A DNA stretch of 64,000 nt from Rhizophagus irregularis (Eukaryota; Glomeromycota; Glomeromycetes; Glomerales; Glomeraceae), in contig NC_089460.1 of assembly GCF_026210795.1 (NCBI RefSeq), positions 2,566,501-2,630,500 on the forward strand, written 5' to 3'. Positions 1-53,310 of this stretch are shown piece after piece (within the stretch, counting starts at the first letter, position 1; the number at the start of each line of letters is the position of its first letter). The position numbers and the translations under genes are program-made. The notes below the pieces were generated by a model that saw nothing but the letters and a program-made list of their open reading frames with translations, was not told where the DNA came from and did no database searches.

Positions 1-572
1 AACCAAAATGTTTCACTTTGAAAAACTATTATATTATCGGGTGTAAATTGTATTGCATTATTAAAATAGATTTAAAAAATTTGTAAAAAAATTGGGTGGG
101 AACACCCTAAGAGTAAGCCCCGTTGTGTTATAACCTTTTTCTTTTTTACGGAAAGAAGTTACAATCGCATAACTGTGCTATGACCAACAAAACCAAATTC
201 GCGACCTCCCAATCTCGAGTAAGAACTCTTCTTCGATCATAAAGAAGGCCATGAAGTGCGAATTGGTTATACCTCATTATAGGCGACACTTTCTGTCATG
301 TGTCCGAGGACTTTCCCCAAAGTAATAATAAAAGAGCTAGTAATCCGAGGATTAATGCTCCGTTTGTGTTACTTTGATAGCGATTCTTTAAGGTGCTCCC
401 AGTACCAAAAAAAAAGAGAAAAAGAGGAATTTAAAATTTAATTGTTTACCTAAATGAAATTAATTTGGAGTTGTGAAAAGTACAGTACTTAATCATACAT
501 CATACCACCAGCAGAATATAATCAATTATGAATAATTATTATTCACCAATACGATATATCAACTTGCCTTTG
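1..572. other. Left-edge intergenic DNA
   Basis: No supportable gene. Positions about 105-400 are clearly less AT-rich than their surroundings and could be an old repeat or transcribed spacer. No open frame or RNA gene can be defended there. Confidence 0.4.
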
Positions 573-31539: not shown

Positions 31540-32280
31540 TATATGTTACCCAAATTATTTGGGATATCATAATTATAATTTGGAATACTGTAATTCATTC
31601 AATTTATATATAATTTACTATATAAAGTGCCAAAATAATTTGGGATGCCATAATTGAATTTGGGATTTTACATATAATTATGGCAGCCCAAAATAATTTG
31701 GGTAGTATATATATTATTTGGCAAGTTAACTTTATGCTTGAAATAATACTGGACTTATTCAGAATAACAATCGACTTTTCTATTAGTCATTATGAATTTG
31801 ATTAATACATATAAACTTTTTATATGTCAAAATAACAACATAAAGCTAAACACCTCAAATCCAATATAACATCTTTCAAATTTATCTATTTTTATATAAA
31901 ATGTAAAAAAAATTGATTTATTATTAAAAAATTCACTTTTAAAAATTAATAAAATTAAATAATCTATATAATATAAAGAATTAATTTAAAATTCACCCTA
32001 TGTTATTTTTTAATTTTAATCACCTTAAGTGAAATTCATCACCTTTGATTTGTATTATATTTCACAATTTTTTTTTTATTTATTTATCATATTATAATTT
32101 ATACATGCCATCCAAATTATTTTGGGCTGCCGTAATTATAAGTAAAATCCCAAATTCAATTATGACATCCCAAATTATTTTGGCACTTTACATAGTAAAT
32201 TATATATAAATTGAATGAATTACGACATCCCAAATTATAATTATGGCATCCCAAAATAATTTGGGCAGCATGTATATTAT
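31540..32280. mobile_element. Fold-back element or paired inverted MITEs
   Basis: Two arms of about 180 bp, at 31540-31716 and 32100-32280, are inverted copies of each other with close similarity by eye. They flank about 380 bp of unique AT-rich DNA. Landmarks such as taattcattcaatttatata and gtgccaaaataatttgggat appear in the left arm and reverse-complemented in the right. Each arm is itself bounded by short inverted ends (tacccaaattatttgg and ccaaaataatttgggta). The structure is therefore either one fold-back element or two copies of a small MITE in opposite orientation. No target duplication was identified with confidence. Confidence 0.7.
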
Positions 32281-32451
32281 AATTATAAAAAAAAAATTTT
32301 TTTTTTAAAAAAAATTTTAAAAGCTTTGTTATTAACACATATTAAACACTTTGACTTAGTTTTCTTACTTATATCTTGTGAAGTTACAGGTATTTTATAC
32401 AATTCATAGTATGATATTTATTTTTAAATTTTTTTTGTATTATATTTTCTA

Positions 32452-33010
32452 ACTTTAAAGCATAATTTTGCCACTTTGGTCAAATGAAAATCAACTTCCT
32501 TTATTAAATTAAAGTTGTTTAGCAATGTCAAAACTACTTATATCTTGAATAACATAAATGTAGGTATAATATTTGTGAAAATATTCGTGTTTTTATAATA
32601 ATAATAATTTTTAAATTTTTTATTTTTCTGTTTGTTAACTTTAGAGTGTAATTTCACTACTTTAGTCAAATGAAATTGACTTCCTTTATTAAGTAAAAGT
32701 TGTTCAGCGATGTTGAAACTACTTATATATCTTAAATTTTATGAGCATAGGTATAATACTTGTGAAGATATTTGCATTTATATAATAGCAATAATTTTCA
32801 AATTTTTCATTTTTTGTTTATTAAATTCAGAGTATAATTTTACTACTTTGCTCAAATGAAATTGACTTTCTTTATTAAGTGAAAATTATTCAGCAAGGTG
32901 GAAAACACTTACATTTTAATTTTTATGAGTGTAAGCATAATACTTGTAAAGATATCTGTATTTTACATAATGATACTAATTTTCAAATTTTCTTGCTAAG
33001 AATATGATAA
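32452..33010. repeat. Tandem repeat, about 187 bp period, three and a part copies
   Basis: Units begin near 32452, 32637, 32825 and, truncated, 32992, with an earlier partial unit near 32368. Each contains ctactttggtcaaatgaaat, cttcctttattaagt and aggtataatacttgtgaa in that order. No open frame follows the units. It may be a degenerate satellite or the interior of the neighbouring element. Confidence 0.6.
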
Positions 33011-33702
33011 TTTCACTATTTTGGTCAACATTTTAGTTATCAAATTTTATAATGCTTTAATAAAGTAAAGAGGAAAATTTGCAATTTATTGGCATTTTAC
33101 TTTCATCACGAAGTTTAACCAAATGGGAGTCTTGTATTTATCAAATAGCGGTATTTGATAAGTATTAAAAATTTGCATTTATTAAGTAATAAAAAAATAA
33201 AATACTTAATTGCCGATCTGCATGTGATTGATAAAATTTACATAGTAAAATGCGGCATTATGTTAATTAATAAAAAAAATGCCATTTGAAATCTCTGTTT
33301 TCCCAAGAAACAATAATGTTAAATACATATATAACTCCCAAAAAACTTGTTGCAACTGGCGTTATTATATCAGAACTTCATTATTATGTCCATATTTATA
33401 TGACTTGTTTATTATTTTTTAAAAAAAAATTCAAGATAACTATTCCTATTTTGAGATTACACTAAAACTTAATAAAAGTCATTTTATTATTCATATATTT
33501 CATTATATTCATATTTTTTATAAACTGGACATATTTGTAAAAGAAAAAGAGATATAAAAGTGCGTAGTATTATTAAAAATGTAATAGTTGACAGAAATAA
33601 TAATCAAAAAAAGTTTTATAAGCATCAAAAAAAAGTTAAAGAGCTAGAAATCATTTATACCATAAAAGTAAAATAGTAGTAAATACTATGAAATCTCTGT
33701 TT
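33011..33702. other. AT-rich spacer
   Basis: About 700 bp with no recognised gene or repeat, apart from a T6A9 run at 33415-33429. Confidence 0.35.
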
Positions 33703-35128
33703 TAGAGGTATGCTCTGAAATCCGTCAATCTGGATATCTGGTCATCCATCCAAAAATTGACCAGATTTGGATTGATCTGATTGTGTTACTGGATTGACCA
33801 GATGAATCAATGGATATCTGTTCAATCCTTGTATCACCAGTTTGACCAGATTGATCAGATAGTTCAACGGATATCCGTTCAATCCGTTCAATCCATTCAA
33901 TTTTTTTTTCTTAAAAACATAATTCATATTTATTGTTTATGGTTTATTATATAGTAATGTAAATTTATTTATTAATTTGAACCAAATAAAATTATTACAT
34001 TGCTTAAAATAAATCAACCCCACACACTTACCCATATCATAATACAAAAGAAACGTTAGTACATTTCTTCAAAGTAAATTCCAAAAGAACGCGCTCCCAT
34101 ACACTTAAATTTACCCAATGTCCAAAAGAATTCGGGAAGCCGAAATCTACAAAAAAGAATAAAAAATGAAATGTTAGTACATTTCTTCAAAGTAAATTCG
34201 TAAATAACGCATCCTACATACTTACCCAATATCCCAAAGAACTTGAAAGCCAAAATCTACAAAAAAAGAATAAAAAAAGAAATGTTAATACATTTCTTCA
34301 AAGTAAATTCCAAGAGAACGCGTTCCCACACACTTACCCAATATCTCAAAGAACCCAGAAAGCCAAAATCTACAAAAAAGAATAAAAAAAAACGTTAATA
34401 TGTTTCTTCAAAGTAAATTCCAAGAGAATGCACTTCCACACATTTACCCAATATCCTAAAGAACCCGGGAAGCCAAAATCTACAAAAAAGAATAAAAAAA
34501 GAAATGTTAGTACATTTCTTCAAAGTAAATTCGTAAATAATACACCCCACACACTTACCCAATATTCCAAAGAACCTGGGAAGCCAAAATCTACAAAAAA
34601 GAATAAAAAAAGAAATGTTAGTACGTTTTTTCAAAGTAAATTTCAAGAAAATGCACTTACAAACACTTACCCACTATTCTAAAGAACTCGGGAAGCCAAA
34701 ATCTACAAAAAAAAATAAAGAAAAACGTTAGAAAAATAAATAAATAAAAAAAAAACAAAAAGACCTCCTCTAACTTACCTTCAAGCTGAAATCCAGTTCC
34801 AGGAAGGTGTTCCCTAGAAAAATGAAGTAAAGGAAATGTCCTAAGCCGTTTAAGCTGAATTCCAAAGGGAAGAATGACCGAAGACGCTTTCTCTATATTT
34901 ATATATATATTTTTTTTTTAAAAAAAAAAGCAAAAAAAAATACTGGATTTGACCAGATTATCTGATCAATTCGGTCAATCCAATCATCCATATAACATCC
35001 GATCAATCTGGTATTATCCAACAGATCCATCTGGATTTTTCAAAATTCGTTCATTCTTAATCCGGATTATCCGATCCAGTCAAAAAATAGATGACGGATT
35101 GAACAGATTCCACTGGAGCATACTTCTA
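33703..35128. mobile_element. Non-autonomous inverted-repeat element with hAT-like ends
   Basis: The left end reads TAGAGGTATGCTC and the right end, reverse-complemented, reads TAGAAGTATGCTC. Similarity continues into AATCxGTxCAATC. The element is flanked by 8-bp direct copies, ctctgttt (33695-33702) and ttctgttt (35129-35136), which match at 7 of 8 bases. An 8-bp target duplication with ends of the YARNG type is characteristic of hAT elements. Many short subterminal repeats (gaccagat, caatcc, ggatatctg) fill the outer 200 bp on each side, also a hAT habit. No transposase is present. The interior is the splice-unit array described separately. Confidence 0.72.
34115..34813 (-). repeat. Tandem array of intron plus 32-nt micro-exon units
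   Basis: Read on the minus strand, six copies of a micro-exon lie at 34671-34702, 34559-34590, 34448-34479, 34338-34369, 34226-34256 and 34115-34146. They are preceded by a 35-nt exon-like block at 34779-34813. Five of the six are 32 nt and one is 31 nt. Each is preceded by TTTTTTGTAG or its close variants and followed by GTAAGT or GTAAAT. The 76-81-nt introns contain TACTAAC, TATTAAC or TCTAAC, 15-30 nt before the acceptor. The repeat period is 110-112 bp. Splice signals are kept in every unit while the intron middles vary. Whether it is transcribed is unknown. The apparent open frames here on both strands are by-products of the repeat. Confidence 0.8.
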
Positions 35129-35136
35129 TTCTGTTT

Positions 35137-36488
35137 CTTACATATAAAACTTTATAAACTGCAAAGAAAAAAAACTTTTTATAAAAAAAATTTTTTTCCT
35201 AAAATCTTAAACGTATATTGCAAGAGTTAAATTATGCAATTGTATAACAATATAGTTGCATTTTATTTGATATAAAACATGATTGACATGGCTTATATAT
35301 AAATGTTGTGCCACATTTTATTGCAATATTTTATTATTTATTAATTATTTAATTTTTTAAGCATTTTTTTAATACTTTAATTTAACATTTATAGATACTT
35401 TTTCAATGTATCTTGTATCCAATAAGTGCTATTTATAAATATTTAGTAAATGATTTGATAAACATTATGATGTTACATGTATAAATTTTAAAAATCATAT
35501 GATGACCAGGTAATTTTCACCTGGAATGAGCGAGAACTCTGCTTACTTATAAGATAGGTCATCCCAGACTTAAGGTAAAAATTATATATAAAATTCTTTG
35601 CAAATCCTATTATAAAAGGAAATTTTATATTACATTGGTATGATTTTTTTTCTTTTTAGCTAATTAACCAATAAAAAGTAAGGTAAAAACTATTAGTAAA
35701 GAGCCAATTTTCTATAGTAACTTTTATTATAAGTAAGCGGGATCCTGATAAGCGTTAAAATTATCCTAATATAAAATGGATATTACTAAATTTTACTGCA
35801 GGTAATTCTCACTGTACCAGCATTAGCAATTATTAACAAGTAGAATTTCATGTTATTTTTAATTCTACCCAAAATTCTACCCTAATTCTGGTAAGATGAC
35901 AATTACCATTAGTAATATTTAGTAATGCTCATATAAAATTATAAAAATTTTACCAAAATTCATTATTTAAAAGTAGATTTTTTAACAACTACTAATCAAA
36001 TCTTTGTAATATTTTAAAGATAAGCTAATTTTAAGTTAAAGAATTGATTTTTGTCATTAATTTTACTTTAGCTATTCTGGTTAAAATGTTGAAATTTTTT
36101 TTTTTTCACTAAAATGGAATTATTAATAAAACAGCTGATTGAATTTATTTTTAGGTAATTGTATATTATATTCTATCATATATTGCTATATATTAATATA
36201 ATAACTATTTCAAAAGCATTCTAAAAAATTTTGCAAATAGAAATAATATATAAAAAATTATACATTATCTAAATGATTAATTTTGTTAAAAAATGGCATT
36301 TAAAACCCTTTTTGGTATTCCAAGTAAACTTGCTAAAAAGGCGATTTTATGAATTTTAAAACATTTATTTGAAATATCGCCAAAATTATTTAACCATTTT
36401 AGGATCGAGATCTGATCTACGGGTTTTTTTTTTTGATAAAATTTATTCTCTTTACTGTTTATCTTTGATTTTCGATTCGCTTAAAACT
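35137..36488. other. Spacer and TIM50 promoter side
   Basis: About 1.35 kb, AT-rich. A possible small inverted-repeat element lies at about 35505-35765, where gcttacttataa near 35540 recurs inverted near 35733 within weakly matching flanks. No gene seen before the TIM50 start. Confidence 0.35.
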
Positions 36489-38645
36489 ATGGCTTCTTCT
36501 TTGTTATTATTAACACGACCTCACACCAATCTTCTTTTAAGTTTAACTCAACCTAAACGATCTACAATAAACCGAAACTCTTTAATAAAAGTAATCACAC
36601 TTTTTCGTTTGCCCAGTTATCGGACACTTAGTCTGTTTCCGGCAAAAACTATCGTTCCAATGAACACGAGTTTTATTCGTAGACAAACAACTTCTGCAAC
36701 AAATCCCGTTGAAAACTTACCAAAAAAAGTTCGAAACAAGCCAAAAAAATCGAGTGTTGATAGTATGAGTCCTGAGGCCAAAAGGGCGTACGAGATAACA
36801 GGCTACATTATGTTTGCTTCGACATTAGGTCTTGTTATATATTCTGGTGAGTTATTTAATTCATTTTATTTTACGAATTTTCTCGTGTTTTTAACGCATA
36901 ATTATAAGGAATCTCACAAATCATTGTTAATAGTACGCTAAACTCAATCTATGATTTGATTCAGGGCGTCCATTCAATACTGATCGAGAAAATCAAGTAA
37001 GAAATCTCAATTTTATATAATTAAATATGTAAATAATTTTTGTTTGATTTTTATACAGTATAAAGATTTAGACACTTTCACAGCGTGGTGTAAGCGATTG
37101 GGAGCACGCACCAAGGATCTTTTTCATGTAAAAAGTTCAAATATGTTTATATCAATTTCAATGTTATTTATTTATTGGGTTTAGAACTTTATTTTTTTTA
37201 TTCTTTTTTTTAGTTTTTCACAGAACCACCATCGGATAAATTGTTACCGGATCAAGATTCCCTGCCACCACCGCCTTCTCCATATACGTTAGTAATTAAT
37301 TTGGACCAAACTCTCATTTATTCAACTTGGGACGTGAGTATGAGCAAATGTTAATATGATTTATCTAATTAATATTAATTCATAAAGTTCATTCTATTCT
37401 AGAGAGAGAATGGTTGGCGATTGGCAAAACGACCTGGAGTTGATTATTTTTTATTTTTTGTGGCAAATATTTTCGAAGTGGTTATTTTCACATCCCAGCC
37501 CTCATATGTGAGTTAGATATGCTTTTGGAGCCAAAACGGTTTTAATAGATTCACAATAAATGATTTTACATTTATAGATTGCTGAACAAATTTTAATGAA
37601 ACTTGATCCATTGGGACTTGTTCCCTATAGACTTTATAGAGAATCGACGAGATATGTTGAAGGCAAAATAGTCAAGGTTTTGTTGCGTTTATATTTATTT
37701 AAAATAATAAATAAACAATAAATATCAATTCATTTTTCGTATTTCACGTATAGGATATTTCAAAATTGAATCGGGATCTTTCAAAAGTAATTATTATGGA
37801 TTCTAATCCCGATTCTTATTCATTGCAACCTGAGAATGCAATTGCGGTACCTCCATGGAAAGAAGATCCAAATGATACTTTCTTAATAGATATTTTACCG
37901 TTCCTTGAATGTATGCATACTACATAATTTATTTTTCTATTTGACAATGTTAATGTCTTGAATCAAAAAAAAAAAGAAAATTTTTAAAAAAATTATTCAC
38001 ATTTATAGCTTTTCCACTATTTACGGTCAATGATGTTCGTCAAATATTACCACAATATAAAGAAGAAAATATTCCAAAAGCTTATGCTGCATGGGAAGAA
38101 CAATGGAATAAACAACAACAGTTGGAATGGGAAAATAAACTTAAGCAACCAAAAAAAGGATTAGCAAGCTTAGTTTCAGCTTTTAGCAGTGGTCAAATTG
38201 TATGGGAGAGCCTTAATATTTATTTTTTTTTTTGGTAGATTTTTAAATTTAATTGTTTTCCCCCTTTCTTTCTTTTAACAGCAAGAACAAATACCTCCTT
38301 ATAAACAAAAATTGATGCAACGTCAAATTATGAATGATGAGATTAACAATTCATATCGAGATTATAAACGGCGTGCACCAGAATTACAACAAATGTACAA
38401 AAGTAGTATGGAGAATTGGCAGAAACAGGTTGAGGAGAGTATGAAAGAGAAAAGGACAACACTCTGGGAACTTATGACTCAAGTAAATATTTATGTATTG
38501 AATATTTTTTATATTTACTTTCTACATTTAACTATAATTTTTTTTTTTTAAGGGAGTACCCCAAGTTCCTATGCCTGATTTACCATCAGACCAAGATAGT
38601 TCACAATTAAATCCCCTTAAACAAACTAATTCTCCATCACAGTGA
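36489..38645 (+). CDS. TIM50: TIM50, receptor subunit of the mitochondrial TIM23 translocase
   Basis: Inner-membrane receptor that hands presequence proteins to TIM23. The start [19 protein letters not shown] gives a basic, Ser-rich presequence. It is followed by a single membrane span ([15 protein letters not shown]) and the intermembrane-space FCP1/NIF-like domain. The domain includes [75 protein letters not shown] and [12 protein letters not shown]. The catalytic-site segment reads NLDQT, so the first Asp of the phosphatase DxDx motif is replaced and the domain should be inactive, as is usual for Tim50. A charged C-terminal tail ([20 protein letters not shown]) follows. At least eight introns; stop at 38643. 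Confidence 0.92.
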
Positions 38646-51042: not shown

Positions 51043-52199
51043 AGTTGAGGAAATTGGAGATTATTCAGAAGATAAAATTATTATTTATAAACAGAAGAAT
51101 GAAAAGAGAATAGTTAGTCAGAGTTTTACCTATAAAATAATTATGGTAAAAAAATATCTGGATAAAATGATTCTTCAAGTTACTCATGCATCAAACCGTT
51201 ATTCTATTTCTGATAGTTACAAAATACAAATAAGGTAAGGACGTGTAGAAGAAAATAAAGTAATCCAATATATAATTACATATTAAGACAATAGGCCTTT
51301 ACATTGTATACAATATGGTGAAAACTTTAATGAACAAGTTTTTTTTAAGTTGTTAGCTACCAATGCTGCTGATTTGTTATATAAGGTAAAGTAGTTATAA
51401 TTAAATAAATATGTTCAAATATACCATTAATTTATAATTTTTCTGTAGAAATTTACAGAAAATAAAGCAAAAATATCAGGAATTTTACTTTTTGGATTAC
51501 AACTGAATAAATTAAAAGAATATCAAGAAATGAAATCAGTCAAACTACATGCAAAGATTTTGAAGCTTGTTAGTAAGTTGACAACTTCTGGATTAACAAA
51601 ATGAGCAATAAAGATAGTATTTAAAATGTCAGAACAATTTTCAGAAATTGCCAATGACTATTATCTTTCAGAAGATGTTCCATTATTGGAATCAATAGAA
51701 TTTAGTATTAAAGGTAAAGGATATGATATCGATTATGGAAAAGAAAATCAAGATTTAAAATATAAAAAAGAAGTTGCAATTGTAAAAGCAATAGATAAAA
51801 GCAGAATTTCACGTGATGGCTATAGATATTTTATGGCAATTGAATCAAATTTACCAAAAGAATGTGCAAGAATATTGCTAATTTGCACTCAGGGTAAAAT
51901 CATCTAAAAGTGATTTCACCCAGGTCATGATTAATTTATTAAAAATTTATTAAATTTGATTAGTGTAAATTTAATATTTCTCACTTCATAATTTGGCATA
52001 TAAATCCCCTGTAAATTTTTTAAAATTTTTTGATTGGCTAAATTTGTTTAAATATACTGTATAATAAATGTGCTTAAAATACTTTTGCACTAAAAGTTTA
52101 TAACAATTTATTAATTTTTAATAGATTACATGATTTATTGATTGAAAAAAACAAACTCATACTATCCAAAATTCTAAATTTTTTGATAGGAATGATAAA

Positions 52200-53000
52200 A
52201 AGAATGAGTCACAATGATAAAGAAAAGAGAATATATGAATGAAAAAGGGAAAAGAGAATGAAAGTAAATGAAAAAAATAGGGAGTGAAAGGGAATGAAAG
52301 AAACAAAGAGGGAGTAAAGGAGGAATGAAATGGAGCAAAGGGAGAGCGAAAGAACGAAGGGAATGAAAAAGATAAAGTGGGAATAAAAAAAAAATGAAAA
52401 GAATGAAGGGGGACAAAATGGAGCAAAGGGGGAATAAAAAAATGAAAGGAACAAAGGGTAGTGTAAAGAAATGAAAGGATGAAATGGGAATGAAAAAAAA
52501 TTAAAATAATAAAGGATAGTGTAAATGAACGAAAAAGATGAAGTGGGAATGGAAAAAAATGAAAGTAATGAAGGGTAGTGTAAAGAAACGAAAAAGATGA
52601 AGTGGGAATGAAATAAAAACAAATGAGAGGTAGTATAAATGAATGAAAAAGAATAAATGGAAATGAAAAAAAAAAGGAATGAAAAAAATAAAGTGGAAAT
52701 GAAAAAAAAGTGGAAACAAAAAAAAAGTGTAAACAAAAAAAAAAGTGTAAACAAAAAAAAAGTGTAAACAAAAAAAAAAGTGGAAATAAAAAAAAAGTGG
52801 AAACAAAAAAAAAAGTGGAAACAAAAAAAAAGTGGAAACAAAAAAAAAGTAGGAACAAAAAAAAATGAAAGGATCGAAAAGGAAATAAAAATAACGGAAA
52901 AAATGAAGGAAGGGAAGAAAAGACAAAAAGAGAGCAAAAAATGGAGAAGGGACGAAAATGAGATAAACAGGAGACCAAGTAACAACCAAACCCATAAAAT
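52200..53000. repeat. Polypurine (GA-rich) satellite inside the nested element
   Basis: The plus strand is almost entirely A and G for about 800 bp. The left part is made of degenerate units such as gaatgaaaaagatgaagtgg. At 52690-52860 there are about ten units of a 14-17-bp repeat, gtggaaacaaaaaaaa or gtgtaaacaaaaaaaa. The long Phe/Ser/Leu-rich frames on the minus strand are artefacts of this composition. Such tracts can form triplexes or stall polymerases. On the minus strand the region is one very long pyrimidine tract. Confidence 0.85.
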
Positions 53001-53040
53001 AAAAAAAGAAATAAAGTTAGTAGGGAACAGAGATTATATG

Positions 53041-53310
53041 TAATAAATAAATGAAAACAAAAAAATAAAAACATACCTTAGTAGTTGCAGAAAAGAACTG
53101 AAATGCAAAATGTAAGAAACAAAATTCAAAAACAAAATAAAAAATAAGAAGAACGGTCATGTAGTGCTGGACATACTTAATTGCAAAACTGAAAGAGCCA
53201 AAGGACCTAAAAAAATGAAATAAAGTTAGTAGGAAACAAAATGCAAGAAGCAAAAATGAAAAAAAAGAAAACGTACCTGGATGCCGTGTAAAGAAGTGAA
53301 AGGACCTAAA
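53041..53310 (-). repeat. Micro-exon/intron string in the nested element
   Basis: On the minus strand, exon-like blocks of 29 nt (53305-53277), 30 nt (53206-53177) and 21 nt (53097-53077) are bounded by TTTAG or TTTCAG acceptors and GTACGT or GTATGT donors. The first two begin with the same GTCCTTT. The intron at 53207-53276 carries TACTAAC followed by a T-rich tract. A further TACTAAC lies near 53020 in the following intron-like stretch, which has no obvious acceptor. The arrangement parallels the array at 34115-34813, although the exon sequences differ. Confidence 0.65.

What the first reader, a model, noticed from the sequence alone, without database searches (positions are those of the whole stretch)
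33703..35128. Inverted-repeat element whose interior is a tandem array of complete introns and 32-nt micro-exons
Sequence shows: hAT-like ends and a near-perfect 8-bp flanking duplication. Inside, on the minus strand, six consecutive units of 110-112 bp each contain a TTTTTTGTAG acceptor, a micro-exon (five of 32 nt, one of 31 nt), a GTAAGT/GTAAAT donor and a TACTAAC/TATTAAC branch site. A 35-nt exon-like block and its own intron precede them. All splice signals are kept in all units. Known: introner elements generate introns from mobile DNA, and hAT MITEs can carry internal repeats. Inference: this could be a mobile cassette that is spliced out of, or into, host transcripts, or a non-coding RNA gene amplified by exon-unit duplication. 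Because 32 is not a multiple of 3, including one or two exons shifts a reading frame and including three restores it, so such an array could act as a splice-dependent frame switch.
Basis: partly seen in the sequence, partly recalled or inferred. Interest (0 to 1): 0.9.

Follow-up and report, generated by a model that had tools for sequence, protein, structure and literature searches.

The report
Transposon-like element carrying repeated introns
A small jumping-gene-like element in what looks like a fungal genome carries a stretch in which an intron plus a 32-letter exon has been copied about six times; the copies look spliceable but show no clear sign of coding for a protein or of being kept for a purpose, so it is an unusual curiosity that needs RNA data.

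Summary
Window 33703-35128 is bounded by 13-bp inverted repeats (12/13) and an 8-bp flanking duplication (7/8). Its minus strand carries six blocks (five of 32 nt, one of 31), each between a TTTTTTGTAG acceptor and a GTAAGT/GTAAAT donor, with TACTAAC/TATTAAC in the introns. One correction: the last donor has no matching acceptor; a broken seventh unit lies there. The strict intron triple occurs five times in the 64-kb window, all in this array. A further intron joins the array to a 5' exon through a donor half unrelated to the unit, which argues for real exon-intron architecture rather than a copied chance motif. Function is not supported: 'exons' vary as much as intron interiors, no frame shows coding constraint, the predicted spliced RNA has no ATG, and the splice signals' lower variability (p = 0.045) is not significant without CpG columns (p = 0.21). 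No ORF of 60 codons lies close by for a frame switch. Best reading: a non-autonomous hAT-like element carrying an intron-containing, non-coding or decayed gene fragment whose intron+micro-exon was amplified in tandem, now mostly drifting. No second copy was found, but the host genome is not held.

The parts
33695..33702 (.). left copy of the flanking duplication, CTCTGTTT
   Evidence: 7/8 match to right flank
33703..33715 (+). left terminal inverted repeat TAGAGGTATGCTC
33716..33900 (.). left subterminal region rich in GGAT/ATCC/CCAGAT motifs (GACCAGAT: 4 in the two arms, 0 in the rest of the window)
33929..33973 (-). four AATAAA hexamers downstream of the array on the minus strand (candidate poly(A) signals; the window has 3.3 per kb of strand, so weak)
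34019..34114 (-). donor (34114) and branch site (from 34061) of the last intron and remains of a broken seventh unit; no matching acceptor
34115..34146 (-). micro-exon 6, 32 nt
34147..34225 (-). intron 5, 79 nt, GTAAGT..TACTAAC..TTTTTTGTAG
34226..34256 (-). micro-exon 5, 31 nt
34257..34337 (-). intron 4, 81 nt, GTAAGT..TATTAAC
34338..34369 (-). micro-exon 4, 32 nt
34370..34447 (-). intron 3, 78 nt, GTAAAT..TATTAAC
34448..34479 (-). micro-exon 3, 32 nt
34480..34558 (-). intron 2, 79 nt, GTAAGT..TACTAAC
34559..34590 (-). micro-exon 2, 32 nt
34591..34670 (-). intron 1, 80 nt, GTAAGT..TACTAAC
34671..34702 (-). micro-exon 1, 32 nt
34703..34778 (-). intron 0, 76 nt: donor half unrelated to the unit, branch-acceptor half homologous to it
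34898..34905 (-). TATATAAA, TATA-box-like, in an AT-rich stretch
   Evidence: weak
34940..35115 (.). right subterminal region with the same motif set
35116..35128 (-). right terminal inverted repeat TAGAAGTATGCTC
35129..35136 (.). right copy of the flanking duplication, TTCTGTTT

Best explanation
A non-autonomous, cut-and-paste (hAT-like) element that carries, on its minus strand, the remains of an intron-containing gene or transcription unit (TATA-like stretch, 5' exon, intron 0). The last intron's 3' part, 32 nt of exon and the start of the following intron became the unit of a tandem amplification (slippage or unequal exchange), giving six complete exons and a broken seventh unit. If transcribed, the RNA should splice into a short, exon-repeat, non-coding RNA, because the units keep strong signals. 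The element would depend on a transposase from elsewhere. The array now evolves mostly neutrally, with an excess of change at CpG. Shown: ends, flank duplication, units, splice-like signals, unrelated donor half of intron 0, lack of coding constraint. Inferred: hAT mobilisation, capture of a gene fragment, transcription, splicing, methylation as the cause of the CpG changes.
For: Terminal repeats and flank duplication beyond chance; subterminal motif clusters in the arms. Strict intron triple 5 times in 64 kb, 5 of 5 in the array. Of five tandem arrays that I chose from the 30 TRF rows and scanned for a relaxed intron pattern, this one has 7 matches on one strand, the others 1, 0, 0 and 0 on both strands together. 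Intron 0: donor-to-branch part no more like the unit than shuffles (479 of 1000 at least as good), branch-to-acceptor part clearly homologous (0 of 1000), so an upstream exon with its own GTAAGT is joined to the array's acceptor (compared with one unit intron, 34257-34337). No ATG in the predicted spliced RNA; synonymous changes at null level in all six frames; exon columns as variable as intron interior, 12/32 against 17/41, p = 0.81; transitions 42, transversions 11; columns with a CpG in some unit vary in 11 of 14, others in 22 of 98. Tandem repeats born inside MITEs are described (PMC9659126, passages seen); gene-fragment capture by Pack-TYPE elements including Pack-hAT is described in plants (PMC8903248, passages and abstract start seen).
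Against: No RNA evidence. No second genomic copy, so mobility and capture are inferred from one insertion. No parent gene identified. The last donor has no matching acceptor. A chance splice-like unit amplified in tandem would look much the same apart from intron 0. Two thirds of the variable columns (22 of 33) are not CpG, so CpG decay is only part of the change. The right tip TAGAA does not fit the recalled hAT tip rule fully.
Confidence: 0.5

Rival explanations
1. Splice-like signals are a coincidence in one AT-rich 111-bp unit; the array is an ordinary minisatellite inside a MITE, never spliced.
For: Units are copies, so only one chance triple is needed; the Markov rate of the looser strict form is 0.4 per 64 kb, so over many windows of a large AT-rich genome some such arrays are expected. 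Exons are not conserved. Signals versus the rest is p = 0.045 overall but p = 0.21 without CpG columns.
Against: Intron 0 adds an unrelated upstream GTAAGT at the right distance, by my rough estimate from base composition a 1-4% coincidence (not run as a call); six of six exons keep acceptor and GTAA[AG]T donor, and five of five complete unit introns keep the branch site.
Confidence: 0.28
2. A functional, mobile, spliced non-coding RNA gene (or splice decoy) maintained by selection on its splice signals.
For: Strong signals in every complete unit; signal columns 2/17 variable against 29/73 (p = 0.045); two of six introns fold with z about -2.5, with donor and branch in stems; one stem pair has a two-sided change that keeps pairing.
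Against: Effect not significant without CpG columns (p = 0.21); the other four introns have z between -0.3 and -1.8, and the branch stem has broken pairs in three of five units; exons drift; last acceptor lost; one copy known.
Confidence: 0.1
3. The array is a plus-strand protein-coding tandem repeat (37-codon unit, lysine-rich), and the minus-strand signals are its reverse complement.
For: 84-codon ATG ORF at 34428-34682 with two repeats; only 8 of 1000 Markov and 36 of 1000 tandem-null arrays reach that length.
Against: Unit lengths 112, 111, 110, 113, 110 break frame; each plus frame has stops in at least two of the five units examined; no significant excess of synonymous change (frame 2: 169 of 1000 null at least as high); no Pfam match above cut-off (best E 0.21) and no PDB match.
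Confidence: 0.04
4. An introner: a transposon that is itself spliced out of host genes as an intron.
For: Has TIRs and a target duplication, as many introner families do (PMC9860276 passages).
Against: Splice signals lie inside and are repeated, not at the element's ends; no ORF of 60 codons or more starts between 31.0 kb and the element, and the nearest on the right starts 1.4 kb away; no second copy.
Confidence: 0.02
5. A micro-exon array that acts as a frame switch in a host protein.
For: 32 is not a multiple of 3; the frame entered from the 5' exon has one stop only (exon 1) across all six exons, and skipping exon 1 leaves 91 codons open.
Against: No ATG in the spliced RNA, no ORF of 60 codons close by to switch, exon 5 is 31 nt and breaks the period, no coding constraint.
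Confidence: 0.02

Closest known systems
hAT-superfamily MITEs / non-autonomous hAT elements
   Same: short TIRs, left tip fitting the recalled YARNG rule, 8-bp target duplication, clustered subterminal motifs, no transposase ORF seen
   Different: 1.4 kb long, interior is an intron + micro-exon array; no copy or transposase seen to confirm the superfamily
Pack-TYPE elements (Pack-hAT; PMC8903248, described in plants)
   Same: non-autonomous DNA element that seems to carry exon-intron sequence
   Different: no parent gene identified; cargo amplified in tandem; described set is from plants
MITEs that carry tandem repeats and seed satellite DNA (PMC9659126)
   Same: tandem array inside a MITE-like element
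   Different: unit contains a full set of splice signals
Introner elements (PMC9860276)
   Same: link between DNA transposons and introns
   Different: introners form an intron in a gene, with splice sites at or near their ends; here whole introns and exons are internal

Membership tests
hAT superfamily (non-autonomous) | terminal inverted repeats | tested here: met
   12/13 bp
hAT superfamily (non-autonomous) | 8-bp target-site duplication | tested here: met
   7/8; one insertion only, no empty site
hAT superfamily (non-autonomous) | YARNG-type tips (rule recalled) | tested here: inconclusive
   left tip TAGAG fits; right tip TAGAA lacks the final G
hAT superfamily (non-autonomous) | ends shared with an autonomous hAT transposase gene | not testable with these tools
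   host genome not held
Pack-TYPE element | carries a fragment of an identifiable host gene | tested here: inconclusive
   no Pfam match in the predicted minus-strand products; parent gene could not be sought in the host genome
Introner | element is excised as an intron, with splice sites at or near its ends | tested here: not met
   signals are internal and repeated
Introner | multiple copies in genes | not testable with these tools
   no host genome; within the window only short AT-rich matches besides itself
Protein-coding micro-exon gene | start codon and open frame through the exons | tested here: not met
   no ATG in the predicted spliced RNA; one stop in exon 1 in the best frame
Protein-coding micro-exon gene | purifying selection on exons | tested here: not met
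   12/32 exon columns against 17/41 intron-interior columns variable; no synonymous excess

The most novel reading that the evidence does not exclude
A transposon that carries a genuinely transcribed, multiply spliced non-coding RNA gene whose exon number grows by tandem duplication of intron+exon units, so that each genomic copy is a natural experiment on how many serial micro-exons a spliceosome will join.
Probability: 0.13. Interest if true: 0.7.

Novelty: new variant of a known kind. Interest (0 to 1): 0.42.

Why it matters
If spliced, it would be a mobile element that multiplies whole introns and micro-exons, a route to intron and exon gain different from introners, and a natural test of serial micro-exon splicing. 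If not spliced, it is a caution: tandem duplication can multiply a chance or captured splice set into what looks like a designed array.

Tried and rejected
Copies elsewhere: a 20-nt acceptor+exon pattern in viral contigs (2 hits) and genome contigs (10 hits), a 17-nt intron pattern in viral contigs (19 hits) and a TIR pattern in viral contigs (3 hits) gave loci L001-L034. With low-complexity filtering and E 1e-6 the element matched none of the loci held then; without the filter the first 12 match mainly around the searched word. Of the three TIR hits, those in L033 and L034 lie inside long ORFs and L032 has the same sequence as L034 around the hit; no partner TIR was found in any of the three. 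Plasmid collection: no match. These collections are prokaryotic or viral, so absence says little. Rfam at 33000-36000: none up to E 1. A short match of the units to 37185-37218 proved to be A-rich sequence only. The bacterial promoter/terminator scan was uninformative (3 promoter-like against 6.2 expected).

RNA structure in the introns: a donor stem and a branch stem are predicted by alignment of five introns, with one pair changed on both sides and kept, but z-scores are -0.3, -2.65, -0.7, -2.5, -1.2 for the five unit introns and -1.8 for intron 0, and the branch stem has broken pairs in three of five; not claimed.

Three-unit higher-order repeat: suggested by TRF period 333 and by units 2 and 5 (91.8% alike), but units 1/4 and 3/6 (83.9%, 83.7%) are no closer than others; not claimed.

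SP7-like repeat effectors of arbuscular mycorrhizal fungi were considered as a source of repeat exons (PMC11333574, passages seen); I made no comparison with SP7 sequences. Prior reports: 'Rhizophagus' with 'microexon' gave one unrelated paper and one search gave none; some searches returned 56, 5, 1088, 85 and 21 papers, of which I saw listings of 15, 5, 12, 12 and 8 and passages of two. None that I saw reports an intron + micro-exon tandem array inside a transposon.

Alignment caveat: in the alignment used, unit 6's donor GTAAAT is split by a 6-column insertion, which makes its donor look like the majority; the column +5 counts as variable either way because of unit 3. Unit 6 lacks the last 27 columns.

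Full report
Setting. The window is 27.7% G+C and holds eukaryotic genes; four of ten ORFs scanned match Pfam: ATP synthase alpha/beta, WD40, a BCDHK/PDK-type kinase and a methyltransferase. Reading the frames by eye shows introns in the ATP synthase and WD40 genes. An RNase MRP RNA lies at 101-398. It looks to me like an arbuscular mycorrhizal fungus (Rhizophagus-like); that is recall, not tested. The host genome is not held.

Observation. The element 33703-35128 has 13-bp terminal inverted repeats (12/13) and an 8-bp flanking duplication (7/8). In the window 3 such combinations occur, this one and two nested ones at 31641-32253; 40 Markov resamples average 0.1. The arms are dense in GGAT/ATCC/CCAGAT motifs; GACCAGAT occurs 4 times in the arms and 0 times elsewhere in the window. 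On the minus strand the interior has six exons of 32, 32, 32, 32, 31 and 32 nt, with acceptor TTTTTTGTAG before each and GTAAGT (4) or GTAAAT (2) after each. TRF gives 6.0 copies of 111 bp, 83% matches. Five introns of 78-81 nt are complete with TACTAAC/TATTAAC; intron 0 (76 nt) has TTCTAAC. The intron after exon 6 has donor and branch but no matching acceptor: a seventh unit is broken there.

Is it more than chance? The strict triple occurs 5 times in both strands of 64 kb, always in the array; resamples give 0.4 (any YAG) or 0.017 (TTT[TG]TAG) per 64 kb (60 resamples). The pattern was chosen after seeing the array, and because the units are copies this is one event. Independent support comes from intron 0: between donor and branch it is no more similar to a unit intron than shuffles are (479 of 1000 at least as good), while from branch to acceptor it is plainly homologous (0 of 1000). 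So an upstream exon with a separate GTAAGT is set correctly against the array's acceptor, as in a real gene. By eye, four host introns in the ATP synthase and WD40 genes have donors GTATAT, GTAAAA, GTATAA and GTAATT; a fifth region (kinase) was looked at and no intron could be assigned. The array's donors are thus closer to the general consensus (recalled) than these few.

Coding? The predicted spliced RNA (5' exon, taken as 115 nt, plus six exons) has no ATG. One frame is open except for a TAG in exon 1; omitting exon 1 leaves 91 open codons. No frame of either strand shows a significant excess of synonymous change among 31 distinct changes in units 1-5. On the plus strand an 84-codon ORF (34428-34682) spans two units; 8 of 1000 Markov and 36 of 1000 tandem-null arrays reach that length, so it is longer than expected, but each plus frame has stops in at least two of the five units examined, unit lengths break the frame, and it has no Pfam match above cut-off and no PDB match.

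Constraint? Over six units, 12 of 32 exon columns and 17 of 41 intron-interior columns vary (p = 0.81). Donor, branch and acceptor columns vary less, 2 of 17 against 29 of 73 (p = 0.045), but without CpG columns 2 of 16 against 19 of 61 (p = 0.21). Columns with a CpG in some unit vary in 11 of 14 cases, the others in 22 of 98; transitions exceed transversions 42 to 11. CpG change is thus strongly enriched but accounts for a third of the variable columns. It would fit a methylated transposon; R. irregularis TEs carry CG methylation (PMC8647823, passages seen), if the host is that lineage. The poly-pyrimidine tract (1 of 21 non-CpG columns varies) was left out of the comparison; counting it with the background would weaken the signal contrast.

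Mechanism. Most likely a hAT-like non-autonomous element picked up or evolved an intron-containing transcription unit; a segment running from within one intron to the next was tandemly duplicated, copying acceptor, 32 nt of exon, donor and branch together. Each new unit is born splice-competent, so the array needs no selection to look designed. A TATATAAA at 34905-34898 and AATAAA hexamers at 33973-33929 could start and end a transcript, but such hexamers are common here (3.3 per kb of strand for AATAAA).

Surroundings. Among ATG ORFs of at least 60 codons starting in 31.0-38.5 kb the only ones outside the element are at 36489-36941 and 38315-38551 (plus strand). No long coding frame is close by to be switched; short exons would be missed.

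Comparison. Tandem repeats within MITEs (PMC9659126), gene capture by Pack-TYPE elements (PMC8903248) and transposon-derived introns (PMC9860276) are each known; of these papers I saw passages. The combination, a transposon interior made of repeated intron + micro-exon units, I did not find in the listings seen, which cover open-licence PMC papers only and in several cases only the top of a long list. Filed as a new variant of a known kind.

Noticed in passing
window 31641-32253: Second MITE-like element: TGGGATGCCATAA inverted ends, perfect 8-bp flank AAATAATT, with an inner inverted repeat GGCAGCCCAAAAT at 31682/32131.
   Followed up: partly
window 32420-32991: 186-bp tandem array, 3.1 copies, between the two elements; one relaxed intron-like match on the minus strand.
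   Followed up: partly
window 101-398 (-): RNase MRP RNA, 133.7 bits.
   Followed up: no
window 34428-34682 (+): 84-codon lysine-rich ORF with two 37-aa repeats on the strand opposite the introns, longer than most null arrays give.
   Followed up: yes
window 34257-34337 and 34480-34558 (-): In introns 2 and 4 the donor and the branch site are predicted to lie in two hairpins (z about -2.5); weak or absent in the other introns.
   Followed up: partly
window 52157-53074: Short tandem repeats with long overlapping F/L/S-rich minus-strand ORFs, probably low-complexity artefacts.
   Followed up: no
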